NCBI RefSeq assembly: GCF_007741535.1
Contig: NZ_CP036525.1
Coordinates: forward strand, 7,750,001-7,814,000
Source: Rubripirellula lacrimiformis
GTDB lineage: Bacteria > Planctomycetota > Planctomycetia > Pirellulales > Pirellulaceae
Reading direction: 5' to 3'
Length of the DNA stretch: 64,000 nt
The notes beneath the pieces were generated by a model. It did no database searches, was not told where the DNA came from, and saw only the letters and a program-made list of their open reading frames with translations. The position numbers and the translations under genes are program-made. Shown one piece after another: positions 4,235 to 60,138 of this stretch (its first letter is position 1; each line of letters begins with the position of its first letter).

Positions 4235-7200
4235 ATGAAGAACGCACGCCTTGCTTCAGTCGAACCTCGGCTACTTTCAATTGCCTTCGTTCTAACGGCT
4301 TCTTTCCTTTTCACGTCGATGGCGATGGGGACAGATGGGGGCAGTACGTCTCCAACTATCAGCGAATCTGAAGCGGACGACATCGCTTCGACTGATGTTC
4401 CTTTGATGTGCTGGAACAGTTCATTCGACCTTGATGGGTGCCAAGGCGAGGACGGTGAGCCTGGATCTGGCTGTGGATGCGGGGGAGAAGTGGAAGCACC
4501 AAACCAAGATGCGATTCCTGCGATTCCGGGGAATACCAGCAAATCGATGAGCAATGACGCCTACTTCAGCCACGGGCAGTCACGCGTTTTCAACGTGACC
4601 TATAACTACTTCCACAATGCAACAGATTATTCGGCTCCAGACGGATATTCGACATCAATAAAGCGATTTCATCGAAGCCGTGATCTTACGGAGGTCAGCA
4701 GCTTCGGGCCCGGCGTATTTTCAAGCTGTGACATTCGATTTCAATTCAATTCACTAGGCGGAATTAACACCAGCATTTTCAAAGCGTCGATTTTCGACCC
4801 CAGTGCTGCGTCAAGAGTAGAGTTTCGCTATCAACTCAATCTGGCCGAGGATGCTGTCTCGTTGATTCCAAGCGATCGCTCGCGATTCAAAAAAATTGAG
4901 ATTTTGGATGACCAGCTCGCAGCCATCGAAGCTCCACTGCCTGGATACTACGACATTGATGCGGACGCGTTTGAATTTGCGGGTGCAGAGTTTGCGCGTG
5001 CAACGAGCTGGAATGGCGACATCTTTTTGTTTGAGTTGGTAGTCGCCGAAGCGTACCCGGGATTTGACCCCGCCGTTCACCATCCTCAGAATGGGCGACT
5101 TATCGAAGCTCACACTCGCGATGGCAATGGCTACACCATCAACTACAAAACATGGACTCAGCCGCAGATCGACGCGGCTCCCGACAGGCTGTGGCAAATC
5201 GATACAGTCGTAGACTCCCACGGCCAGACACTTACTTTCGACTACAACGCCCAACAGCAAAGCGGATTGTGGGCTGTGAGTCGCATCACGTTACCAAACA
5301 GCGACTACATCGATTACGGATACGCAGGCGGCTTTCTGAGCACAGTGGATTATCCGGACGGCACCCAGACGACCATTTCTTATGCTGCTGGGACTAACGG
5401 GCTGGTTGAAATGGATTTTGAGGACGTCGCAGCGGCACCAAAGCATCGTCGAAAGACTGTTTCGCTGACGGGATCGGTTGCGACAGTCAACGGTTCTGTC
5501 GTGCCGACGGCCGTGGGGCTCACACGCGTCGTAGTCAATGGCGAAGACGAGGTCACTTACCTCAACGGGGCAGGCGAGAGTAGTATCAAGGGAGTGATAT
5601 ACGAGGGTGGCGGTCGCTTGAAACAGACGGTCCAGAATCTTGACACCTTCGACTTTGCGCCAGAAATCTTTTACCAGGATGGTTGGTCAATTGCAGAAGA
5701 AATGGGGGAGATGACGCTTACAGGTCAGGCGGAACCCATTTTTCAGCTCGAGACCGGTATCTCGATGAAAACAGGCAACCCTGAGGCCTCACGTGATTCC
5801 CGTGGTGTCTTTCGCGAGTTCGAATACGACAGCAATGGCAGCTTGACTTTCATACATTACTCTGATGGGAGCACGTTTGAGGCTTTTTGCTATGACGGAG
5901 GCAACAACTTAATCCGCATGCGTGACCGCAATGGGAATGTGACGCGATACACCTACGATTCCGCCGGAAGGATGCTGACCAAAGCAGAGGGATTGGTTGA
6001 CGGCGTTTCCAATCCTGGTGACGTTTACAGCAGCGTGTACAACCGTTGCCCGACGGATGACGTGCAAACTGCGGAGTATGCAGTTGAAACGTTCACGTAC
6101 ATCTCGCCAGGAAATGATGGTGAGGGACGTATCGAAAGCAAGACGGACCCTCTTGGGAATGTGACAAACTACGAGTACGACTCACTAGACCGGTTGAAGA
6201 AAATCATTCAGCCGACAGCATCGCTCGGCGGATCGCGCCCCGAAACGGCCTACGCATACAAGTCCGATGGGAGACTTGATACCGTCGTGGATCCAGCTGG
6301 CCATACGACTCAGTTCTTCTACGACAGCCGAGGACGTGAAATCAGCCGTCTCTACGATGACGGCACATCTGACCGAACAATCTACGGCGTTACAGGCGAT
6401 TCTACTGGGCTGGTGGTAAAGCGAATCAACCGAGCCAAGGTGGTGTCCACATTCGAGTACGACAAAGCAGATCGGCTCGTAGAGGAAACCAAGGCGGCAG
6501 CGGTTATCGATGATTCCGATACTGAAGTTGCGACGTCAGACATTGCGATCGCGCAGACAATGGAATACCTGAACGGCACCGACTCTGTCGTTGCGGTGCG
6601 CCAAAGTGGCGACTTAACCGAATACCTGTACGATTCTCGTGGTCGCCGCATTGGCACCTTTGTGAATTCGAGCGACGGCGGCAAACAGGCCACTCAACTA
6701 GTGTTCCGCGATAACAAATTGCTCAGCCGCGAAGACTCATCGGGCAGAAAGACATTCCACGCCTACGACGCGACAGACGGACGCTTGATTCGAACGGTTA
6801 CCGGCCTAACAGCCGAATTCTCGTTGGCAGACTACGCTGCTGTCAATTCACTGGTCCGCGATAGCGGCCCCAACGCCGATTACTTAATTAGCGACCGCGT
6901 CTATCGAGCGAATGGCACACTAGAGTGGAGCTACGATGGCCGTAATTCAGCGACCACCACTGAATACGACAGCCGAAATCGCGCAATCGCAGTGATTGCG
7001 GATGCCGACTACGATGACCGCAGTACGCTATCAACCCTGCCCACCGCGATGGAATTGCGCACTGAAACCGACTGCGACCTGGCATCGAACGTCACCGAAG
7101 TTCGCTCTCCGCGCTATTTTGACTCTGGCGACAGCGAGGGCTACCAGAAAGCCAAAGAGACCTGGACCTACAACGGAAGGGGTCTGACTGCGACTCACAC

Positions 7201-37451: not shown

Positions 37452-38489
37452 ATGATGTCTCGTAAACGCAACCGAAAACCTGTTCCGCCCGTCGATGAAA
37501 TCAAGTTCGGCTTCCAGCACTTCATCAACGTTCACATCGATGACCTTCGCGCCCGCAACTACTCCGAACTCACCATCGACAACCGCTCGAAGTACATCCG
37601 GCGGTTCGCGCTGTGGTGCATCGCTCGTGGGATCACGCAGCCCAACGAGATCACCAAACCGATCCTTGAACGGTTCCAACGTCACCTCTACCAGCACCGC
37701 ACCGAGCAGGACAAACCGCTGTCGTTCCGATCGCAATACACGCATCTCTCCAGCCTGCGTGCGTGGTTCAAATGGCTGGCCCGTAAAAACTACTTGCTGT
37801 TCAATCCCGCCAGTGAACTTGATCTACCCAAGCTGGGCCATCGTCTTCCCAAAGCCGTTTTAACCGCGGGCGAGGCCGAGCAAGTCTTAGCCCAACCCAA
37901 CATCGCCGAACCGCTTGGCATCCGCGACAGGGCCATCTTGGAAACGTTCTACAGCACCGGCATCCGTCGCGGCGAACTGGCGAACCTTCGCATCGACGAC
38001 ATCGACAGCGAGCGACGAACGATCATGATTCGAGAAGGCAAAGGCAAGCGAGACCGAATCATCCCGATCGGAAAACGAGCGTTGTCATGGATCACGGTCT
38101 ACATCGAATCGGCGCGCGGCGAACTGCTCTGCAATCAAGCCGAACCGACGCTGTTCTTGACCAACGAAGGCGGGCCGATCAATCCCGACAGCCTTACCGA
38201 ATACGTCCGCCGCTACATCGACCAAAGCGAAATCGGCAAACGTGGTTCATGTCACCTGTTCCGTCACACGATGGCCACGCTGATGCTCGAACACGGGGCC
38301 GACATCCGGTACATCCAAGCCATGCTCGGCCACGCAAAGTTAACGACGACTGAAATCTACACTCAAGTCAGCATCCGAAAGCTGCGTCAAATCCACGAGC
38401 TGACGCACCCGGCGGACCACGACCGAGAAGAACCAGACCCCGACGACTTGAAGGCCAACAGCGGCGACGACAACGACGCGGACGACTGA
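37452..38489 (+). CDS. Tyrosine recombinase / integrase (XerC/D-like)
   Basis: The start is ATG 37452 (or 37455) after AAGGTGAA, giving 345 residues. An N-terminal SAM-like core-binding domain (about 20-115) precedes the catalytic domain. All active-site residues are visible: R172 in TGIRRGEL, K197 in EGKGKRDR, H268 and R271 in HLFRH, H294 in MLGH and the nucleophile Y303 in TEIYTQ. It is likely to be active and to catalyse site-specific integration or excision of the primase-carrying element. It may also act on the hairpin site right after the gene. The acidic C-terminal tail is unusual for Xer proteins. Confidence 0.92.
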   Translation: MMSRKRNRKPVPPVDEIKFGFQHFINVHIDDLRARNYSELTIDNRSKYIRRFALWCIARGITQPNEITKPILERFQRHLYQHRTEQDKPLSFRSQYTHLSSLRAWFKWLARKNYLLFNPASELDLPKLGHRLPKAVLTAGEAEQVLAQPNIAEPLGIRDRAILETFYSTGIRRGELANLRIDDIDSERRTIMIREGKGKRDRIIPIGKRALSWITVYIESARGELLCNQAEPTLFLTNEGGPINPDSLTEYVRRYIDQSEIGKRGSCHLFRHTMATLMLEHGADIRYIQAMLGHAKLTTTEIYTQVSIRKLRQIHELTHPADHDREEPDPDDLKANSGDDNDADD

Positions 38490-41056: not shown

Positions 41057-42823
41057 TTACTTTTTGCGGGTTCGGCGGCGGGCGCGGCGAGTTTTCTTGC
41101 GGTCGGCGGCTTGGCGACGTTCGTCGTCGCGGTATTGCCGGATCGATTCGGGATGTTCTGCCTTCCAGGCATGGGGCGTCATTGATTGCCAGTCGGTTTC
41201 GCCGGATAGCGCACGCCGCAGGACATCATCCAAGTACGCTCGCACGTCCAAGTTGTTGCGGATCGCGCTCCCGATGATTGTCATTAAGTTTGCAGCCCGT
41301 TCGCCCGCGGCCACCGAGCCTTTGAACATCCAGTTCTTGCGACCCGTCGCCACCCGCTTCATCAACTGCTCGCAGTCGTTGTTGTCCAGCGGGATCGATA
41401 CATCTTCGGTAAAACGATGGAGTGCCTCCCAGTGCCGACGGACGTAGGCCGCCGCCATCCCAAGGTTGCTCTTGGGAAGCACCTTCGGTGACTGCATCGC
41501 TTCACTGGAAAGATAGGCTTCGATCTGATCCAGAACATGACGTGACAGGCTTTGGCGTCGCGAAAGTTGCTCCGGCGCAGTAAGGTGTTTGCATTGATCC
41601 TCCACGTCGTAAAGATTTCCAATCAACGACTCAAGTTTCGCCACTTGGATCGGGAACGCACTGCGGCACTCGTCGATCTTGCGACGCGCATGTGCCCAGC
41701 ACGCTGCGAAAGTGATTCGCGAGTCGCTTCGTATTTGGATCTTCTGAAATCCCGACCAACAGTCGCCAATCAGGTTACCTTCAAAGTCACTCAGCACGTC
41801 GTCCGGACCATCACGGTGACGGCTAACCGTGAAGTCGAAAGCGACAACCGGAAGCCGTGAAGCGTAGTAGCCCCAGAAGTTCGCTTTGATGCTTGGCTTG
41901 CCTGTGGTCATCGCCTTCTCGAGGACCTCGGTGATACGTTTACCGCGCGGGTGATCCGATAAGTCCGGCATCGCGGCGGGCGTAATCAACAGCACGCCGG
42001 TGTCATCACAGCCAACGGTGGGATCTTGTTTCAGAATGCTCTGCAAGTGCTCGGCGAGCGGACGCAGGGCGAACTCGACGGCCGTTTCGATGTTCTGCAG
42101 TGTGCTGCGACTGGGCGTCCAGCCGCTGGCCCCGAACATGTCTTGTTGACGATAGAACGGCAGGTGATAGAAGTACTTCCAGGCCACCACCTCGACACCG
42201 ATCGAGGCGTCGAAGCGATCCCATTCGACGAGGCCCGTGGGCCGCTCGGGGCTGACGATGCCTTGCGCTTTGTCGGTTGGGTGGACGTATTTGGCATACT
42301 TGGTTAGTCGGACTTTGAGATCCGCGGGAACCCACTCCAGCGTTTCAACTTCGTCATAGCCGATCAGGGTCAAGCCTTCGCGTTTTCCTTCGGGCACATC
42401 GACGATGCGTTCATAGCGCGGCAAATGTTCGGGGAACTTGCGGTCGCCGGTTGCGGAGCGATTTCGTCGTCGCTTCTTCTTGTCTTCTTCGGCATCGTCA
42501 ACAATTTGTCGAGCGTCGCAGATCGCTTCTTCGAGTGCGCTGATGACTTCGGGCGTGGGCTCTTCGCCCAAGTCGAAATGCAGCTGGCCGTCACAGTCGA
42601 TGCGTCGCTCACTCTTGCGACCAAAAAGTTGCTTGAGAAGTTTCTCGATCGTCAGGTTCAGCTCGATGTTCTTCTCGTCGAGTTTGTCACGGTCGGACTT
42701 AAGTTCTAAGACGCTGTGGGCTTGTTCCTCAATCAGCTTGTCTTTCAACTCCAGTGCGACGGCTTGTTTTTGAATCAACGCATGAGCAGCATCGAGGTCG
42801 GCGGGGAGTGGTTTGGGATCCAT
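41057..42823 (-). CDS. tnpC: IS66-family transposase (TnpC)
   Basis: I start at ATG 42823 (588 residues). The longer open frame begins at 43036 inside tnpB and is not needed. The N-terminus is a leucine-rich coiled coil (LEQ... LNLTIEKLLKQLFGRKSERR, the IS66 signature). A zinc-binding-like middle and the DDE domain follow, with TVGCDDTGVLLI, LIGDCWSGFQKI, a CWAHARRKIDE block and the final NNDCEQLMKR motif with the catalytic Glu. It ends in a basic tail (KTRRARRRTRKK). This is the cut-and-join enzyme of the element. Confidence 0.95.
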   Translation of the reverse strand: MDPKPLPADLDAAHALIQKQAVALELKDKLIEEQAHSVLELKSDRDKLDEKNIELNLTIEKLLKQLFGRKSERRIDCDGQLHFDLGEEPTPEVISALEEAICDARQIVDDAEEDKKKRRRNRSATGDRKFPEHLPRYERIVDVPEGKREGLTLIGYDEVETLEWVPADLKVRLTKYAKYVHPTDKAQGIVSPERPTGLVEWDRFDASIGVEVVAWKYFYHLPFYRQQDMFGASGWTPSRSTLQNIETAVEFALRPLAEHLQSILKQDPTVGCDDTGVLLITPAAMPDLSDHPRGKRITEVLEKAMTTGKPSIKANFWGYYASRLPVVAFDFTVSRHRDGPDDVLSDFEGNLIGDCWSGFQKIQIRSDSRITFAACWAHARRKIDECRSAFPIQVAKLESLIGNLYDVEDQCKHLTAPEQLSRRQSLSRHVLDQIEAYLSSEAMQSPKVLPKSNLGMAAAYVRRHWEALHRFTEDVSIPLDNNDCEQLMKRVATGRKNWMFKGSVAAGERAANLMTIIGSAIRNNLDVRAYLDDVLRRALSGETDWQSMTPHAWKAEHPESIRQYRDDERRQAADRKKTRRARRRTRKK

Positions 42824-42975
42824 GATGGCGACATTATAAAGTTCGCCACCAAAAGCGCAAGTGCGTCCCCACGAAAGTCCAAAAGAAAACCGGCCCCGCG
42901 AGAATGTTCTCACGAAGCCGGTTGATGCGAAGTGGAACTGATTGATGCGAAGTGGAACTGGCCGGCCAGACGGCC

Positions 42976-43326
42976 CTACGCCACCATTCGCTTGCGTCTT
43001 GTCTTGGCCGATTTCAGTGAGACGCCTGCGATCCACATGGCCAGTTCGACCGAATCGATCGTGACGTGCGTTTGATCACAGGGAGGCGTTGGCAGCTCGA
43101 CGGTGCCTTGCTCGAGTCGCCTGTACCACAAGGTCAATCCACCAGTCTCCCACCAGAGGGCTTTGATGCGGTCTCGCTTTCGATTGACAAACAGAAACAG
43201 CGAACCGTCGGTGACGCTCTTGCCCAACGAGGTGGTGACGATTCCGGTCAGACCATCAAAGCCTTTTCGAAAGTCGACCGGCTCGGTGCACAGATAGATC
43301 GGCATGCCATCAGGCAATCCGATCAT
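42976..43326 (-). CDS. tnpB: IS66 accessory protein TnpB (Orf2)
   Basis: A 116-residue protein with the unmistakable IS66 Orf2 sequence PVDFRKGFDGLTGIV, LFLFVNRKRDRIKALWWETGGLTLWYRRLEQG. It is required for transposition in IS66-type elements but has no known catalytic activity. Its start codon overlaps the tnpA stop (ATGA at 43323-43326), showing translational coupling. A 20-bp direct repeat (TTGATGCGAAGTGGAACTG twice) lies between it and tnpC at 42920-42960. Confidence 0.95.
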   Translation of the reverse strand: MIGLPDGMPIYLCTEPVDFRKGFDGLTGIVTTSLGKSVTDGSLFLFVNRKRDRIKALWWETGGLTLWYRRLEQGTVELPTPPCDQTHVTIDSVELAMWIAGVSLKSAKTRRKRMVA

Positions 43327-43649
43327 GGTTGATCCTTGCGCAGTGGATTCGGCTGAGAATCAGTTGGCACTTCGATACGAATGCGGATGCCACCGGGAAG
43401 TTCAATCGTCGCGTTCGCGAGATTGGCTGCGGGAGCGGGGCGATCCGGTGTGGCTTGAAACGAGACGGGCACAAACTTGGCCACGACGGGGACTTTCGGA
43501 TCCCGCGTCGACCGCAGCTTGCGTTTCCAGTTGTAGAAAGACGGCTGCGAAACACCTTCGGCGGAACAGAATTGAGCGACCGTCATCTGAGCTTGCTCAA
43601 ATCGTTGCAGACGCTCCGTCCAAAGCTTCGCGGTTTCGGCTCGATTCAT
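43323..43649 (-). CDS. tnpA: IS66 accessory protein TnpA (helix-turn-helix)
   Basis: ATG 43649, preceded by GGAG, gives 108 residues; upstream codons at 43661 and 43682 are alternatives. The HTH is in TVAQFCSAEGVSQPSFYNWKRKL (about 24-46), typical of IS66 TnpA/IS3 OrfA-like DNA-binding proteins. The C-terminal half is Pro-rich, with a short beta region IELPGGIRIRIEV. It is the first gene of the three-gene transposition operon. Confidence 0.92.
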   Translation of the reverse strand: MNRAETAKLWTERLQRFEQAQMTVAQFCSAEGVSQPSFYNWKRKLRSTRDPKVPVVAKFVPVSFQATPDRPAPAANLANATIELPGGIRIRIEVPTDSQPNPLRKDQP

Positions 43650-52240: not shown

Positions 52241-53338
52241 TCATTCACCATCCGTTTCCCCAAACTCCGCTTCGATCTGCTCGATCGTCGGTAGTGATGA
52301 ACGCAGGTCATCGGGTAGGTGTTCCGTGATCTGATACTCGCTGACGCCAATCGGCTTGGTGATGTTGCGGAGCGAATACTCGACTTTGATGTCGCTCTTG
52401 CTCTTGCAAATCAGAATGCCGAGCGTTGGAGCGTCCGCATCGGTGCGGATCTGGCTGTCGACAGCAGAAATGTAGAAATTGAGTTTGCCCGCGAACTCAG
52501 GCTTAAATTTATCGACTTTCAACTCGATGACGATGTAGCAGTGCAATCGGACGTGATAGAACAGCAGGTCAATGCTGTAGTCATCGCCGTCGACGTTGAT
52601 TTTGTATTGACGCCCGACAAACGCAAAGCCAGCGCCGAGTTCGAGCAGAAATTTGGTTAAGTGGTCGATCAAACCGTCTTCGAGTTCCCGTTCGTTGTGC
52701 CGCTGGGTCAGTGTGAGGAAGTCGAAGTTGTAGGGATCACGTAGCAGTTGGCGGGCGAAGTCGCTTTCAGGCTGCGGTAAGGTCGCGTCGAAGTTGTCGA
52801 TCGCTTTTCCTTCACGCAGGTGCAAGCCAGATTCGATCTGGTGCGTCAACACTGCTCGGGACCAGTTGTTCTCGATCGTCTTTTTCACGTAGAACAGCGC
52901 GTCGGCGCGGTCGTCGAGTTTGTCCAGAAGGACCAAATTGTGGCCCCACGGAATTTGTGAAACAGCCCGTATCGCGGAAAGCGGCAATTGTGCAGCAAGC
53001 TGTTGCACTTTTTCCGAGCCGGGTGCAGCAACCTGCTGCACTTTCTCGCCTCCCCCCTGCCAGAAGCGAACCCACTTTCGCATGTAGAAGAGGTTTCGCC
53101 GCGAAAACCCCTTCAACGCAGGGAATTCGGCGGTGAGATCTTTACTCATCTGCTTCAGGACTCCATCGCCCCATTTGGCAGTCTGCTGCTTTGCGACGAT
53201 CTGCTCACCAATGAACCAGTACAGATCCATCATCGCATGGTTCACAGCGACTGCGGCTTTGATCTGGGATGCCTGAACCTGGCTCTTGATCGAAACAATC
53301 CAATCGCGGTAATCGTCGTTTGAAGTTAGATCATTCAT
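52241..53338 (-). CDS. DUF1016/YhcG-type PDDEXK nuclease family protein
   Basis: ATG 53338 gives 365 residues beginning MNDLTSND; an upstream codon at 53425 would add 29 unlikely residues. The N-terminal helical domain (VNHAMMDLYWFIGEQIVAKQQ, LKGFSRRNLFYMRKWVRFW) and the C-terminal PD-(D/E)xK domain (GDDYSIDLLFYHVRLHCYIVIELKVDKFKPEFAGKLNFY, about 265-303) are characteristic of the YhcG family. The catalytic-type residues D, E and K in YSIDLLFYH and IELKVDKF are present. The cellular role is not settled; members occur near restriction systems and on mobile elements. A short Gln-rich repeat (EKVQQVAAPGSEKVQQLAAQ) lies between the domains. Confidence 0.9.
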   Translation of the reverse strand: MNDLTSNDDYRDWIVSIKSQVQASQIKAAVAVNHAMMDLYWFIGEQIVAKQQTAKWGDGVLKQMSKDLTAEFPALKGFSRRNLFYMRKWVRFWQGGGEKVQQVAAPGSEKVQQLAAQLPLSAIRAVSQIPWGHNLVLLDKLDDRADALFYVKKTIENNWSRAVLTHQIESGLHLREGKAIDNFDATLPQPESDFARQLLRDPYNFDFLTLTQRHNERELEDGLIDHLTKFLLELGAGFAFVGRQYKINVDGDDYSIDLLFYHVRLHCYIVIELKVDKFKPEFAGKLNFYISAVDSQIRTDADAPTLGILICKSKSDIKVEYSLRNITKPIGVSEYQITEHLPDDLRSSLPTIEQIEAEFGETDGE

Positions 53339-53566
53339 TTGACTTCTATTTTCGTCGTTCGCGTTTTGGCCATGCGGGTTCGCATCCTGCCTAATTGCAG
53401 TGTCGATTTGGTTTAACGCATTCACTTTCGAAACTCAATCATTCTTCACCGCGTTTTGCCGGCCAGTCAATGAATCTCTCCGCACGATGGTGCGGTTGCA
53501 AGCAATCTATAGCGAACTTGCTCCAACCGGAGAGCTCTCAACGGCGCCACGTCAGGACCTTCGGAA

Positions 53567-53836
53567 TCAACTCGTGCCGGGTTCAGGTTTGGGACGCTGG
53601 GCTTCGGCTTGCTGTTGTTCATGGATCCAAGTGTTGGCTTGGTCAGCGAGCTTGGACAGGTTCAGCAAGTCATCACGTCCGTAATTGTGACTGCGTTTCC
53701 ATTCGTTGCCGTCTTTGTAGCTCCGGTCGAACGTGGCATTGTAGCTGACGTGGCCATCTTCGCTGACGTTGCGAAAAACCGCCGCTGCGATCGTGCTCAG
53801 GCGGAGCCGGTGAACAGGTTTGTTTTCGTTAGACAT
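53567..53836 (-). CDS. Small protein near relaxase, paralogue of the protein at 58.4 kb
   Basis: ATG 53836 follows GAAAGGAATCGAT, a good ribosome binding site, and gives 89 residues. The longer frame from 53938 has none. The sequence (AAAVFRNVSEDG ... FDRSYKDGNEWKRSHNYG) aligns with the small protein at 58408-58689 (KATIWSNPGKDG ... YVRSYTDDNGDWHDTTSLG). Both look like a compact beta-sheet domain followed by a helix. The function is unknown. Both flank the MobF relaxase operon, so they are probably element accessory proteins, perhaps single-strand DNA binding. Confidence 0.7.
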   Translation of the reverse strand: MSNENKPVHRLRLSTIAAAVFRNVSEDGHVSYNATFDRSYKDGNEWKRSHNYGRDDLLNLSKLADQANTWIHEQQQAEAQRPKPEPGTS

Positions 53837-54095
53837 ATCGATTCCTTTCGTTGTCATTGGTTCAGACCCTGGTAGCACGACGGCTTCTCGAATCAAAGCA
53901 CAATCGACACGATCCATGAGCACCAGTGGTCGCGTCATGGCTGTGGACGAATCGGTTCTTTGCGTTCCGGATGACTTGCCATGAACGGCGCAGTCGTGTC
54001 AGGGTTGAACGGTCCAAAGCAGTGCTTAGGGGACAAGCCTATCTAAATATTTTGTTTCAATTTGCCCTCTTCTGGGTTCAGCCATATCGTTTCAC

Positions 54096-56978
54096 ATGCT
54101 CATCGCGACCCAAGGCAAATCCGTTTCAAGTACCGTTCAATACTTCGATCAAGTGTTGACCCAGGGTGACTACTACCTCGGCCAGGAAGTGAACGGTCAA
54201 TGGCACGGCAAAGGTGCAGATGCACTCGGGCTCGGACGGGGTACGGATGTCACCAAACAGCAATTCAGCGACCTCCTCCAAGGCAAACATCCGATCGATG
54301 GCACGGCGCTGGCACAACGTAACCGCAGCGACCGACGCCCTGGGATGGACCTGACGTTCTCGGTGCCCAAGAGCGTGTCATTGGCCTGGGCAATCAACGA
54401 GGATGAGCGTGTCGTCGACGCGCTTCGCGCCGCCGTCCATGAAACCATGACACGGGACGTTGAACCACTGATGCAACGCCGCGTTCGCGGTGGCAAGCAC
54501 GCGAATTCCGAGCAGAAGACGACGACCGGCAAGCTGATCTATGCCGACTTCCTGCACAAAACTTCCAGGCCGGTAAAAGGCGAAGCCGATCCGCACCTGC
54601 ACATTCATGCCTTCGTCATCAATTGGACGCAGGATAAAGGCCGCCACTACGCGGGCCAAATGGAAGAGATCGTTCGCCAGCGACCAAGTTTGCAGGCAAA
54701 ATTTGAGTCTCGGCTGGCCAGAAAGCTACAGAATGACCTCGGCTATGCGGTTCGGCGAACACGATTCGCGCAGTCTGGACGCACCAAGGCTGGTTGGGAG
54801 ATCGTGGGCATCGATCGCTCCACGATCGAAAAGTTCAGCCGCCGCACCGCTCAGGTCGAAAAGCACGCATTGGAAAAGGGCGTCTCAAACGCGACCGAGA
54901 AAAGCAAGCTTGGCAAATTGACGCGTGAGAAGAAAGACAAGGGCGCCACCGTCGAGACGCTGAGAGACCGCTGGCAACAGCGGTTGACGCCAGCGGAGCG
55001 AAAAGCGTTCGCTGCCCTGCGTGGTGGCAAAGCTCGCAGTAATGGCGAACCCGAACAAACGCGAGCCAATGCGTCAGTGAAGCATTCCCTGGATCACCAT
55101 CTTTACCGCCAGTCGACGGTCGAGCGTCACCAGGTCGTTGGCACCGCATTGGAACACGGCCTGACGCTCACGCCTGAACAAATTGAGCAAGCGGTCGACC
55201 GAGCTGGCTTGATTGAGCGATCGACTGATGAGAATGGAGCCAAACGCCACCGTGTGACGACCAAAGAAGTGCTCGCCGCCGAGAAGAAGATGATCGACTT
55301 TGCTCGCGATGGCAGGGGAACGCGGAAAGCGATCGGCAAAGACGCCCATTCATTCAAGCGGGAATGGCTGAACGACCAGCAACGATCCGCGGTTACGCAT
55401 GTGATCGAGTCCCGCGACACGGTCATGGCGGTTACCGGTGGCGCTGGTACGGGAAAGTCGTCGCTGATGCAGGAAGCTGCCGAAGCGATTCGCGGCAATG
55501 GGAAGCAGGTCTTTGCGTTTGCTCCCAGCACCGGTGCGAAGGAGGTGCTTCAAACGAAAGGCTTCGACAACGCACAGACGGTCGAGCACTTGATCCGAAA
55601 TACGGATTTGCATTCGAAGGTCGAGAACCAGGTTCTTTGGATCGACGAAGCTGGATTGATGGACGTTCGTTCGATGAACGCCGTATTCAAGATTGCCGAG
55701 GAACGAAATGCTCGCGTTGTGCTTTCCGGTGACACCCGGCAACACGCATCGCCCCGTCGCGGGGAAGCGATGCGGTTGCTCGAAAAGGAATCCGGTCTAA
55801 ACGTCGCCCGCGTTGAAGCGATCCAGCGACAGAAAGGGCAATACAAAGCCGCCGTTGAAATGATTAGCCACGGCCATGCGGTGATCGATCCACAAACCGG
55901 AAAGACCGGTTTGCTGGCGGGGTTCGACCGACTTGACGCGATGGGAAAGATTAAGGAGATCAGTCACGACGAACGACACCAGAAGCTGGCCGAGGCCTAC
56001 CTATCGGCCGAGAGCAGCGGAAAGTCCACGCTGATCGTAGCACCAACCCACGCGGAGGCGCGGGCGGTCACGGACGAGATTCGTGGTTCGCTCCGCAGCG
56101 AAGGAAAGCTGGCAACCGAAGAGCAAACGATCACGCAGCTACGATCCCAGAACTTGACCGACGCAGAGAAGGGCGAAGCCCTCACCTACTCCGCCCACGT
56201 CGGATCGATTGTGCAGTTCCATCAGAACGCCAAGGGTGGCTTCAAAAAGGGCGAACGCTTCCGTGTCGCGGGGGCAATTGGAGACGAGGTTCGGGTTGAG
56301 TCGCTTGATGATGGCAGCGCGAAGAATTTGCCACTTGATGCGACGGAACGTTTCGACGTTTACAGCCAACGTGACGTTTCGATGGCTGCAGGCGACAAGA
56401 TTCGATTCACCGCTGGCGGAACAGCCCAGGACGGCAAGAAACGGATCAGTAACGGGCGCCTCGACGAACTGAAAGGATTCGACCGCAACGGCAATCTGAT
56501 CCTGAAAGGCGGCACGGTCGTCGACCAATCCTATGGTCACGTTGACTTCGGATACGTCGTTACCAGCCACGCCAGCCAGGGCAAAGATCGTCACATCGCA
56601 ATCGCCGCAATGGGGTCGGAGTCTCTGCCCGCAATCAACGCGAAACAGTTTTACGTGACGGTTTCTCGCGGTAGCGAAGATGTCGCAATCTACGTTGACG
56701 ACAAGGCAAAGGTCCGGCGTGCCATCGCGAGAAGCGGTGAACAGCTCTCCGCGACCGAGATGATTCGGTCAGATACCCAGGAACAAACGCGGCCTGAGCT
56801 ACGTGATCGCATGCACGAGTACTTCCACCAAGGGCGGCGGGCCGTCCAATCGTTTCAAGATCGCTTATCGACCTGGTGGAACGATCAATCGAAAAATCGC
56901 GAAACGAACCAGGTTGGACCTGGCACCGGTCTTCGCGGTGGTTTTGGTATGACCCCTGATTTGGGAAGGAGCAGATAA
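54096..56978 (+). CDS. MobF-family conjugative relaxase-helicase (TraI/TrwC-like)
   Basis: A 960-residue protein. The relaxase domain (about 1-290) starts MLIATQGKSVSSTVQYF and has paired tyrosines at about 26-27, the motif LTFSVPKSVSLAWA and the metal-binding triad in DPHLHIHAFVIN (H167, H169, H171). The helicase domain (about 420-900) has Walker A GGAGTGKSS near 448-456, Walker B LWIDEAGL near 514-521 and LSGDTRQH. A late motif YVTSHASQGKD and VTVSRGSED match RecD-type helicases. It would nick oriT and unwind DNA during conjugation. The gene runs into a small gene 1 bp after its stop. No coupling protein or mating-pair genes are in the window, so the element may be mobilisable rather than self-transmissible. 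Confidence 0.95.
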   Translation: MLIATQGKSVSSTVQYFDQVLTQGDYYLGQEVNGQWHGKGADALGLGRGTDVTKQQFSDLLQGKHPIDGTALAQRNRSDRRPGMDLTFSVPKSVSLAWAINEDERVVDALRAAVHETMTRDVEPLMQRRVRGGKHANSEQKTTTGKLIYADFLHKTSRPVKGEADPHLHIHAFVINWTQDKGRHYAGQMEEIVRQRPSLQAKFESRLARKLQNDLGYAVRRTRFAQSGRTKAGWEIVGIDRSTIEKFSRRTAQVEKHALEKGVSNATEKSKLGKLTREKKDKGATVETLRDRWQQRLTPAERKAFAALRGGKARSNGEPEQTRANASVKHSLDHHLYRQSTVERHQVVGTALEHGLTLTPEQIEQAVDRAGLIERSTDENGAKRHRVTTKEVLAAEKKMIDFARDGRGTRKAIGKDAHSFKREWLNDQQRSAVTHVIESRDTVMAVTGGAGTGKSSLMQEAAEAIRGNGKQVFAFAPSTGAKEVLQTKGFDNAQTVEHLIRNTDLHSKVENQVLWIDEAGLMDVRSMNAVFKIAEERNARVVLSGDTRQHASPRRGEAMRLLEKESGLNVARVEAIQRQKGQYKAAVEMISHGHAVIDPQTGKTGLLAGFDRLDAMGKIKEISHDERHQKLAEAYLSAESSGKSTLIVAPTHAEARAVTDEIRGSLRSEGKLATEEQTITQLRSQNLTDAEKGEALTYSAHVGSIVQFHQNAKGGFKKGERFRVAGAIGDEVRVESLDDGSAKNLPLDATERFDVYSQRDVSMAAGDKIRFTAGGTAQDGKKRISNGRLDELKGFDRNGNLILKGGTVVDQSYGHVDFGYVVTSHASQGKDRHIAIAAMGSESLPAINAKQFYVTVSRGSEDVAIYVDDKAKVRRAIARSGEQLSATEMIRSDTQEQTRPELRDRMHEYFHQGRRAVQSFQDRLSTWWNDQSKNRETNQVGPGTGLRGGFGMTPDLGRSR

Positions 56979-56979
56979 A

Positions 56980-57393
56980 GTGGCACACGCATCCAGTGCT
57001 TTCGATCGAAACCGAGGCGGCAACCTTCGCAGCGTCTCGCCCCTGCCCGCTCGCCAGGACGACGACGGGCTACCGTGGCTCCAAGTACGCAACGGCGAGC
57101 TTCCCCCGATGATGTTCCAGCTTCGCTTCCGCGATGGCCGGATCATGAGTTTCGCCTATAGCGACATACGGGAAATTCAAAGTCGTGATGCTGGCCAGAT
57201 CACGCTCGGCATCTTTGCCATGAGCCGAGTGCTCGTGACGATACGAGGCCGGCATCTTCGCGACCTAATGACACTACTGGGCACCGGAAGGATACGGTGG
57301 CTTGAAGAAGACGACACGCGTGACGTGGGTCGCCCCGAGACTTTGCCTCTGATTTTAAGCATCGAAATCGAAGCCTTCCCACCGGCTGGATAA
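56980..57393 (+). CDS. Small conserved protein co-transcribed with the relaxase
   Basis: A GTG start at 56980 follows GGAAGGAG and the relaxase stop by one base, giving 137 residues. The sequence has a beta-rich core (LPWLQVRNGELPPMMFQLRF, IMSFAYSDIREIQSRDAGQITLGI) that ends in RPETLPLILSIEIEAFPPAG. I do not recognise the family. The tight spacing makes it a co-translated partner of the relaxase. Its stop lies 16 bp before the first copy of the palindrome array, so it could bind or regulate that site. Confidence 0.72.
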   Translation: MAHASSAFDRNRGGNLRSVSPLPARQDDDGLPWLQVRNGELPPMMFQLRFRDGRIMSFAYSDIREIQSRDAGQITLGIFAMSRVLVTIRGRHLRDLMTLLGTGRIRWLEEDDTRDVGRPETLPLILSIEIEAFPPAG

Positions 57394-57408: not shown

Positions 57409-58352
57409 ATTACCAAATTTGGTAATGGGATCCATCGCGGCTGATTTGCAGTCGGCAGTACTTCGATCCGCAGCGGTCGGAAGCAGTTCCAAGCTGCGAT
57501 TACCAAATTTGGTAATCGCGATTGCAGGCCAGGTCGATGACCCGAGGTCCGACAAACTCACGGTGATGAAACGCCAGAAGTGCGGTTCCGGCGTTGGAAA
57601 CCAGTGAACCCCAAACATCGTGAAATCGCATCGTCGTGGTTGCGGCAGTGGTCGAGTGGTCGGACGACTATTGACGAACAATTCCTAATTACCAAATTTG
57701 GGAATCACATCGATCGCGATTGGTTTGCAGTTGGTAAAACGTCGATCGGCAACATTCCTAAACGGTTCCGAGGACCTATTACCAAATTTGGTAATGGCGA
57801 TCAAACACTGGTTCGCCGGCCAGAGGTTCGGCAAATTCACGGCGACCGATCGCCACGAGTGCGGTTTCTGACTTGGAAACCAGCGAACTCAAAACGTCGT
57901 GAAATCGCATCGTCGTGATTGCGGCGGCGGTCGAGTGGTCGGACGAGGATTGGCGATGCATTCGTGATTACCAAATTTGGTAATCGCATCGATCGCGAAC
58001 GGTTTGCAGTTGGTAAAACGTCGATCGGCAACATTCCTAAACGGTTCCGAGGCCCCATTACCAAATTTGGTAATGGCGATCAAAGGCTGGTTCGCCGGCC
58101 AGAGGTTCGGCAAATTCACGGCGACCGATCGCCACGAGTGCGGTTTCTGACTTGGAAACCAGTGAACTCAAAACGTCGTGAAATCGCATCGTCGTGATTG
58201 CGGCAGCGGTCGAGTGGTCGGACGACTGTTGACGAAGCTTTCCCAATTACCAAATTTGGTAATCGCATTGATCGTGATTGATTTGCAGTTGGCTAAATTT
58301 TGATCGTTAACCGACAGAATCCGTTTCGAAGACGATTACCAAATTTGGGAAT
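57409..58352. repeat. Array of eight 18-bp palindromes in 279-bp tandem units
   Basis: The perfect palindrome ATTACCAAATTTGGTAAT starts at 57409, 57499, 57778, 57967, 58057 and 58246. A one-base variant (ATTACCAAATTTGGGAAT) starts at 57688 and 58335. Start-to-start distances are 90, 189, 90, 189, 90, 189 and 89 bp, giving a strict two-site 279-bp unit repeated about 3.4 times. Between sites the units are also conserved, for example GTTGGTAAAACGTCGATCGG and AACGGTTCCGAGG. Such spaced palindromes are typical of DNA-protein assembly sites: plasmid iterons, partition centromeres or multi-operator control regions. Position after the relaxase operon suggests an origin, partition or oriT function, which is inference. 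No gene is credible inside the array. Confidence 0.9.
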
Positions 58353-58407: not shown

Positions 58408-58689
58408 TTAGGCCGCGTCTGCTTGGGCTTTCGCAGCGTTGCGGTCGTCGGCCTTCAGCTCCTCGATGCGGTCGGTCACCTTCGGGATCAAGTGTCCCAG
58501 CTTTAGGTTGTCGATTTCGCCTAGAGAAGTCGTATCGTGCCAGTCTCCGTTGTCGTCGGTATAGCTGCGGACGTAAACGGCCGAGTAGCGAGGAGGTTTC
58601 CCGTCTTTGCCGGGATTGCTCCAGATGGTTGCCTTCAGTTGTCCGAAGCGGATTGTGTCGGCAGGCTTGTTTGCGTTGGTTTGGGTCAT
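58408..58689 (-). CDS. Small protein after the palindrome array, paralogue of the protein at 53.6 kb
   Basis: ATG 58689 follows AAAGGAAACTACC and gives 93 residues; the longer frame from 58818 is unsupported. The sequence (TIRFGQLKATIWSN, RYSAVYVRSYTDDNGDWHDTTSLGEIDNLKLGHLI) resembles the protein at 53567-53836. An Ala-rich tail follows (DRNAAKAQADAA). It may be a small DNA-binding or regulatory protein of the element. Its place directly beside the array makes it a candidate array-binding factor, without direct evidence. Confidence 0.75.
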   Translation of the reverse strand: MTQTNANKPADTIRFGQLKATIWSNPGKDGKPPRYSAVYVRSYTDDNGDWHDTTSLGEIDNLKLGHLIPKVTDRIEELKADDRNAAKAQADAA

Positions 58690-60082: not shown

Positions 60083-60138
60083 CGTGTGTTTCCTTTCGTG
60101 TCGATGAATCGGGGCATGATTGCCCCGATTCGGTGGTG

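What the first reader, a model, noticed from the sequence alone, without database searches (positions are those of the whole stretch)
57409..58352. Eight-copy palindrome array with strict alternating spacing next to a relaxase
ATTACCAAATTTGGTAAT occurs eight times (two with one base changed) at distances 90, 189, 90, 189, 90, 189 and 89 bp. Random repeats would not keep two fixed spacings. The array lies between a relaxase operon and a minus-strand small gene. It may be a partition centromere, iteron-type origin or multi-operator switch of an integrated element, with a specific binding protein among the neighbouring small genes. I know of no described site with this sequence.
Basis: partly seen in the sequence, partly recalled or inferred. 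Interest (0 to 1): 0.82.

Follow-up and report, generated by a model that had tools for sequence, protein, structure and literature searches.

The report
Palindrome cluster in mobile element family
Eight copies of a short DNA palindrome sit at one fixed place, next to a DNA-transfer gene, in a mobile element of a planctomycete; related elements carry one to several altered copies at the same place, so it looks like a conserved docking site of unknown role.

Summary
In detail: eight copies, two with one changed base. The alternating spacing is a by-product of a 279-bp tandem repeat with two palindromes per unit; relatives do not keep it. Unit 1 spacers are only 72-75% identical to units 2 and 3, yet among the six palindromes of units 1-3 one base differs, so the palindromes look selected.

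The array lies in a ~108-kb element inserted in a tRNA-Val gene. Of 17 close relaxase loci (window included), 14 have such a dyad, 12 of them 14-94 bp past the gene after the relaxase, two inside the operon. On the relaxase tree the 14 fall on one side of one weakly supported branch. Arms change between elements but stay complementary; the AT centre may be asymmetric.

It is not an iteron origin (iterons lie before rep), not the nic site (an oriT-like hairpin lies before the relaxase), and no terminator or promoter was seen in it. Best guess: a centromere-like cluster of dimer-binding sites; chief rival: a hairpin read on single-stranded DNA. The binding protein is unknown.

The parts
57409..58352 (.). 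array of eight 18-bp palindromes (ATTACC-AAATTT-GGTAAT) in 279-bp tandem units
57409..57687 (.). tandem unit 1 (palindromes 57409-57426, 57499-57516)
   Evidence: 72% and 75% identical to units 2 and 3 outside the palindromes
57688..57966 (.). tandem unit 2 (palindromes 57688-57705 with T>G, 57778-57795)
57967..58245 (.). tandem unit 3 (palindromes 57967-57984, 58057-58074)
   Evidence: 93% identical to unit 2 outside the palindromes
58246..58352 (.). partial unit 4 (palindromes 58246-58263 and 58335-58352, the latter with T>G; spacing 89)
54096..56978 (+). MobF (TrwC-type) relaxase-helicase, 960 aa
   Evidence: PF08751 E 3e-68; NF041492 MobF over its cut-off
56980..57393 (+). conserved 137-aa gene directly after the relaxase; its 3' end borders the array
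   Evidence: a homologue follows the relaxase in all 16 relative loci L126-L141; no Pfam or NCBIfam hit; AlphaFold model pLDDT 85.5 without a significant PDB match
58408..58689 (-). 93-aa small gene convergent to the relaxase operon; b-b-b-b-a predicted secondary structure
   Evidence: no significant PDB match
54017..54043 (+). putative oriT/nic region: hairpin (family consensus CCTAAGC..GCTTAGG; one mismatch in the window) followed by GGACAAGCCTATC
   Evidence: recognisable in 15 of 16 aligned relaxase upstream regions, with small differences (L133 left out as too short)
53567..53938 (-). paralogue of the 93-aa protein upstream of the oriT-like region
   Evidence: 32% identity

Best explanation
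The array is a single-locus, multi-copy cluster of dyad-symmetric sites belonging to a group of MobF-bearing integrative elements of Pirellulaceae-like planctomycetes. Shown by comparison: half-site about NTCCCAAA (TTACCAAA in the window), an AT-rich 6-bp centre, arms that stay complementary, a fixed place at the 3' end of the relaxase operon, several copies in some elements, tandem amplification in the window. Inferred: a dimeric protein of the element binds each dyad, several bound dimers make one nucleoprotein platform, and this serves upkeep of the element while it is extrachromosomal (partition or tethering, centromere-like, as sopC does for plasmid F). Which protein binds is not known; the ParG-like ribbon-helix-helix protein beside a ParA ATPase (95.1 kb, outside the window) is the best-placed candidate, but one test went against it.
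For: One locus: in stretches of 90-110 kb around the relaxase of 8 relatives and the window, dyads with an AAATTT-like centre and one of four half-site types start at +2.7 to +3.4 kb from the relaxase start in all nine; further ones lie up to +4.2 kb, at +6.4 to +10.1 kb in G473, G888 and G887a, and one weaker match at -15.3 kb in G888 (the half-site types were set after seeing the data). Grouping: the 14 elements with a dyad need one change on the relaxase tree, though that branch has weak support (55/68; 54% of bootstrap trees; no shuffle of 500 as low). Copies within an element mostly share a half-site while lineages differ (TTACC, GTCCC, TTCCC, TTCCA, GTCTC and others), as expected if sites track a changing protein. 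The centre tolerates asymmetry (16 of 126 cells), the arms hardly (4 of 210), as in a spacer between half-sites. Sites inside coding sequence in G858 and G692 fit DNA sites with a loose position. sopC is built of 43-bp repeats each with a 16-bp inverted repeat (PMC9178275, passages). ParA and ParG-like genes are in 9 of 10 site-bearing elements with at least 90 kb examined (window, G833, G692, G473, G888, G861, G887a, G576, G858; not G866); in some they lie 21-39 kb away, so that they belong to the same element is inferred.
Against: No binder shown. No ParA/ParG-like gene or ParA Walker motif was found in the 100 kb around the G866 relaxase, which has a site. In 9 parA upstream regions the best half-site match is 5 or 6 of 8 bases, no better than shuffles (means 5.7-6.0), although ParG of TP228 also binds the operator of its own genes (PMC7308502, passage). 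Two-sided changes within single elements (5, against 4 one-sided) and complementarity-only pairing at positions 8-10 fit a hairpin better than a plain dimer site. ParA lies 36 kb from the array in the window element. The coupling-protein operon also tracks the sites, so co-occurrence does not single out ParA/ParG.
Confidence: 0.38

Rival explanations
1. The dyads work as hairpins in single-stranded or cruciform DNA, for example as second-strand or primase initiation sites during transfer or replication of the element; the loop-near part is recognised by sequence and the outer stem only needs to pair.
For:: 24 sites (8 of them from the window) picked only by the 10-mer core pair at position 8 in 24 of 24 (three pair types; shuffles 11.1), at 9 in 18, at 10 in 13; without the window 16, 10 and 9 of 16 (shuffles 8.6, 5.3, 4.9); one site per element, positions 4-8 pair 14 of 14 each, position 9 11 of 14; 5 two-sided against 4 one-sided changes within elements; none of the 4 asymmetric arm cells is G.T. 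A TOPRIM/DUF3991 protein (70278-71246) has homologues in all 8 relatives.
Against: Window stems are short, two of eight carry an A.G mismatch, and one of these folds at only -1.9 kcal/mol as RNA. Covariation between lineages can also arise from a protein changing its preference. No strand bias is visible because the core is self-complementary.
Confidence: 0.25
2. A multi-operator or roadblock cluster: a regulator bound at the 3' end of the relaxase operon controls antisense transcription or insulates the convergent operons.
For: The array lies between convergent genes; 12 of 14 elements have the first site 14-94 bp past the end of the 137-aa gene match.
Against: No promoter-like and no terminator-like site within the array by consensus scan; sites inside the operon's coding sequence in G858 and G692; sites of these half-site types are few elsewhere in the stretches; the secondary sites were not checked against promoters.
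Confidence: 0.15
3. Core sites of a site-specific (tyrosine-type) recombinase, with 6-bp spacers, used for resolution or cassette exchange; the order of the small genes beside the sites differs between elements.
For: Dyad arms with a freely varying 6-bp centre; different order of small genes; a XerC-like recombinase gene in the window element at 37452-38489.
Against: A diverged eight-site array has persisted, which an active recombinase would be expected to delete; the XerC-like gene had a match in only 2 of 8 relatives' stretches and also in the two site-less ones.
Confidence: 0.08
4. RNA hairpin at the end of the relaxase mRNA (terminator, stability element or protein sponge).
For: Position just past the 137-aa gene in 12 of 14 elements; RNA hairpins of -5.3 to -18.3 kcal/mol for five of six sites folded.
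Against: No terminator-like site in the array, no Rfam family near its threshold, no G.U pair among the asymmetric arm cells, sites within the ORFs in two elements, weak stems in the window.
Confidence: 0.07

Closest known systems
F plasmid sopC centromere (type Ia partition)
   Same: tandem repeats, each unit with a roughly 16-bp inverted repeat bound by a dimer; many copies at one locus (PMC9178275 passages)
   Different: sopC stands downstream of sopAB and is bound by a ParB-type protein; here ParA is 36 kb away, the gene after ParA is ParG-like (RHH), and the relatives have fewer sites, often 1-4
TP228 parFGH and pSM19035 delta/omega (type Ib, RHH centromere-binding proteins)
   Same: small ParA ATPase (213 aa) and 76-aa RHH protein in the same element; omega binds pairs of direct or inverted 7-bp repeats, its sites overlap several promoters (PMC9499535 passage)
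   Different: no half-site in the parA upstream regions; sites sit at the relaxase operon's end
R388 oriT / TrwC nic site (MobF; PMC4176350 passages)
   Same: inverted repeat near a MobF relaxase gene
   Different: an oriT-like conserved hairpin with a nic-like tail lies upstream of the relaxase; the array is at the other end of the operon
IncQ ssiA/ssiB primase hairpins (recalled, not looked up)
   Same: hairpin sites of a mobilizable element in which pairing of the stem matters
   Different: shorter dyads here, up to eight copies, no strand orientation

Membership tests
type Ia plasmid centromere (sopC-like) | array of ~16-bp inverted repeats at one locus | tested here: met
type Ia plasmid centromere (sopC-like) | ParB-type binding protein encoded with ParA, centromere beside the operon | tested here: not met
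   ParA at 94473-95114 is followed by a ParG-like RHH gene, 36 kb from the array; not every gene of the element was scanned
type Ib partition (ParF/ParG) | small ParA plus RHH protein in the element | tested here: met
   (AAA_31 E 4e-24; ParG E 1e-5); 7 of 8 relatives
type Ib partition (ParF/ParG) | the binding protein's site also occurs upstream of the par genes | tested here: not met
   best half-site match 5-6 of 8 in 9 parA upstream regions, as in shuffles
type Ib partition (ParF/ParG) | RHH protein binds the dyad; array confers segregation | not testable with these tools
   needs binding and stability assays
iteron-type replication origin | direct repeats beside the rep gene bound by Rep | tested here: not met
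   rep (RPA, PF10134) is at 73179-74300 with its own five iteron-like repeats at 73026-73169
MobF oriT | inverted repeat with adjacent nic region | tested here: not met
   such a region is conserved upstream of the relaxase; no shared tail is seen beside the dyads as printed (by eye)
intrinsic terminator | G+C-rich stem and T run | tested here: not met
   the two terminator-like hits lie outside the array
tyrosine recombinase core site | inverted arms around a 6-8 bp spacer | tested here: met
tyrosine recombinase core site | cognate recombinase present in all elements that have the site | tested here: inconclusive
   homologue of the tRNA-site integrase in 6 of 8 relatives' stretches, of the XerC-like gene in 2 of 8
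ssDNA initiation hairpin (ssi-like) | stem kept by compensatory changes | tested here: met
ssDNA initiation hairpin (ssi-like) | primase or transfer protein initiates at the hairpin | not testable with these tools
   needs in vitro priming assay

The most novel reading that the evidence does not exclude
A lineage-specific cis site of integrative elements in which identity is read at a short core (TCCCAAATTTGGGA) while the outer arms are kept only by complementarity: a DNA hairpin signal, repeated up to eight times, that an element-encoded protein reads on the single strand during transfer or replication. It would be a transfer or priming signal separate from oriT.
Probability: 0.2. Interest if true: 0.72.

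Novelty: new variant of a known kind. Interest (0 to 1): 0.5.

Why it matters
It gives a family of 14 related elements of planctomycetes with a conserved cis site beside the relaxase operon, an oriT candidate, and, for the window element, iterons and integration site. The site's binder could be found by one pull-down and its role tested by deletion. The covarying arms make the question 'double-stranded dimer site or hairpin' directly testable. Two literature searches on planctomycete or Rhodopirellula conjugative elements listed 3 and 6 papers, none with such an element in its title; I did not read them.

Tried and rejected
Spacing as signal: rejected, because the 90/189 pattern is the 279-bp tandem repeat and relatives have other spacings. 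Widespread repeat: rejected for the exact 18-mer (only the window's own genome among 392 phylum genomes, up to 1 mismatch; 21 viral contigs with one exact place each). Plasmid collection: no match to the array; relaxase matches there are all under 60% identity. Iteron origin, nic site, terminator: see membership test. Known RNA family: best hit 20.6 bits against a threshold of 66.5. Neighbour proteins as known DNA binders: no Pfam/NCBIfam family, no Foldseek match with E <= 0.001 (that the b-b-b-b-a order of the 93-aa model recalls PC4/PUR folds is from memory). ParG-like protein as binder: promoter test negative. VirB4 (PF03135): no match in the whole genome, but the same model was found in only 1 of 14 control genomes, so 'probably mobilizable rather than conjugative' is tentative. 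A second motif near the sites in relatives (GCGGGGCRATGGGAAA) was followed only in part. Literature: listings without direct hits; background searches; passages only of PMC9178275, PMC4176350, PMC9499535, PMC7308502.

Full report
What is there. Eight palindromes are confirmed with the stated spacings. They come from a 279-bp tandem repeat, three full units and a partial fourth, each with two palindromes. Outside the palindromes unit 1 is 72% and 75% identical to units 2 and 3, and units 2 and 3 are 93% identical; of the six palindromes of units 1-3 only one has a change, of one base. At 25-28% divergence nine or ten changes would be expected in the 36 palindrome bases of a unit (my arithmetic), so the palindromes are kept by selection or conversion. 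No other copy with up to 2 mismatches exists in the 8.54-Mb genome.

The element. A 48-bp direct repeat at window positions -2319 to -2272 and 105539-105586, the second in a tRNA-Val(CAC) gene next to a tyrosine integrase (104476-105465), bounds an element of about 107.9 kb. It carries the MobF relaxase, a TraG/VirD4-type coupling protein (88124-89668), a PF10134 replication protein (73179-74300) with five iteron-like repeats just upstream, a small ParA with a ParG-like RHH protein (94473-95341), and a TOPRIM/DUF3991 protein. No PF03135 (VirB4) match was found in the genome, with a weak control. A hairpin with a conserved tail (consensus CCTAAGC..GCTTAGGGGACAAGCCTATC; one stem mismatch in the window) ends about 50 bp before the relaxase and is recognisable in 15 of 16 aligned upstream regions (L133 left out as too short, and the printed alignment was cut in its middle); this is the oriT candidate. 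The array lies at the other end of the relaxase operon, between it and a convergent 93-aa gene.

Relatives. Relaxase searches gave 17 close full-length loci (54% identity or more, window included) in 16 of 241 family genomes (two short relaxase fragments, in G692 and G759, are not counted). The 14-mer TMCCAAATTTGGKA is in 19 of 241 genomes: 11 of the 16 with a close relaxase, 8 of the other 225; the control pattern (read backwards) is in 4 of 241. All places of the 8 others were fetched and show no relaxase match; G841 has four copies of a separate dispersed repeat. With variant centres and arms, 14 of the 17 loci have such dyads (11 with the exact core; G576, G564 and G780 with variants); G887b, G753 and G785 have none. 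On a relaxase tree of 22 rows the 14 need one change, on a weakly supported branch (55/68; 54% of bootstrap trees; no shuffle of 500 as low). The eight rows without are those three, Adhaeretor (no dyad of this kind) and four distant ones, for which only the exact core and repeated dyads were looked for.

Place. In 12 of 14 elements the first site starts 14-94 bp after the end of the 137-aa gene match (the end of the alignment match can fall up to about 30 bp short of the stop codon). In the sister elements G858 and G692 sites are inside the 137-aa gene, where they encode VPNLGQ in both, and in G692 also in the 3' end of the relaxase gene. In stretches of 90-110 kb and of 40-120 kb, sites with an AAATTT-like centre lie at +2.7 to +4.2 kb from the relaxase start, with further ones at +6.4 to +10.1 kb in G473, G888 and G887a and one weaker match at -15.3 kb in G888; G849 has a second site about 5.6 kb further on and one on another contig.

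Form. Choosing sites only by the inner 10-mer, position 8 from the centre pairs in 24 of 24 through three pair types (shuffles 11.1), position 9 in 18 of 24, position 10 in 13 of 24, and positions 11 onward are at chance; without the eight window sites the counts are 16, 10 and 9 of 16 (shuffles 8.6, 5.3, 4.9). With one site per element, positions 4 to 8 pair in 14 of 14 each and position 9 in 11 of 14, with more than one pair type at 4, 5, 6, 8 and 9; these representatives come from scans that favour symmetric arms, which inflates this count. In the scan that did not require symmetry, 37 of 44 hits near the operon are symmetric at all five arm positions. In 42 sites of 14 elements (hits with fewer than 4 of 5 symmetric arm positions left out) the arms are asymmetric in 4 of 210 cells, none of them G.T, and the centre in 16 of 126; within elements there are 5 two-sided and 4 one-sided departures, not all independent.

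Reading. The facts fit two mechanisms. A dimer-binding cluster explains multiplicity, half-site sharing within elements and the loose centre. A hairpin explains arms that vary yet stay complementary, also within single elements. I put the first ahead because an array of inverted repeats of this size at one locus of a mobile element is known as a centromere (sopC; PMC9178275 passage), and because the window stems are weak and two of eight are mismatched. I give it 0.38, since the best candidate binder, the ParG-like protein, failed the promoter test and was not found near the G866 site (no ParA Walker motif either).

Limits. Several relatives are short contigs (G564, G753, G785, G780), and in G739 the locus lies near a contig end, so absences there are weak. 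Gene calls are from my own script.

Noticed in passing
L126, L127, L129, L132, L133 downstream of the relaxase operon; window 60203: A second motif, GCGGGGCRATGGGAAA in either orientation, recurs within about 100 bp of the dyads in several relatives; a near copy at window 60203 is one of only two exact matches to CGGGGCRATGGGAAR in the whole genome.
   Followed up: partly
window 54017-54043: Conserved oriT-like hairpin and tail upstream of the relaxase, with a TGTGGA motif about 75 bp further upstream at 53942.
   Followed up: partly
97045-99208 (beyond the window, L032): Adjacent genes for ThiF/JAB, E2-like and Multi_ubiq proteins beside IrrE-type peptidases in the element, perhaps a ubiquitin-like module.
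   Followed up: no
window 52241-53425: YhcG/DUF1016 nuclease next to the relaxase; homologues also stand before the relaxase in G888 and G564 and before relaxase fragments in G692 and G759.
   Followed up: no
window 41057-43649; 76074-78666; 79465-82057: Three three-gene blocks with the same gene lengths and protein starts inside the element, probably transposon copies (family not searched).
   Followed up: no
G841 (L143, L144, L147, L148): Four dispersed copies of a separate repeat around CTCCCAAATTTGGGAG with no relaxase match nearby.
   Followed up: no
G719 (L142) 7102-7111: TACCAAATTTGGTA, the window's own variant, 5-7 kb from two homologues of the small 93-aa/123-aa proteins but without a relaxase match in the stretch.
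   Followed up: no
window 60106-60131: 26-bp hairpin GAATCGGGGC-ATGATT-GCCCCGATTC between two small minus-strand genes.
   Followed up: no
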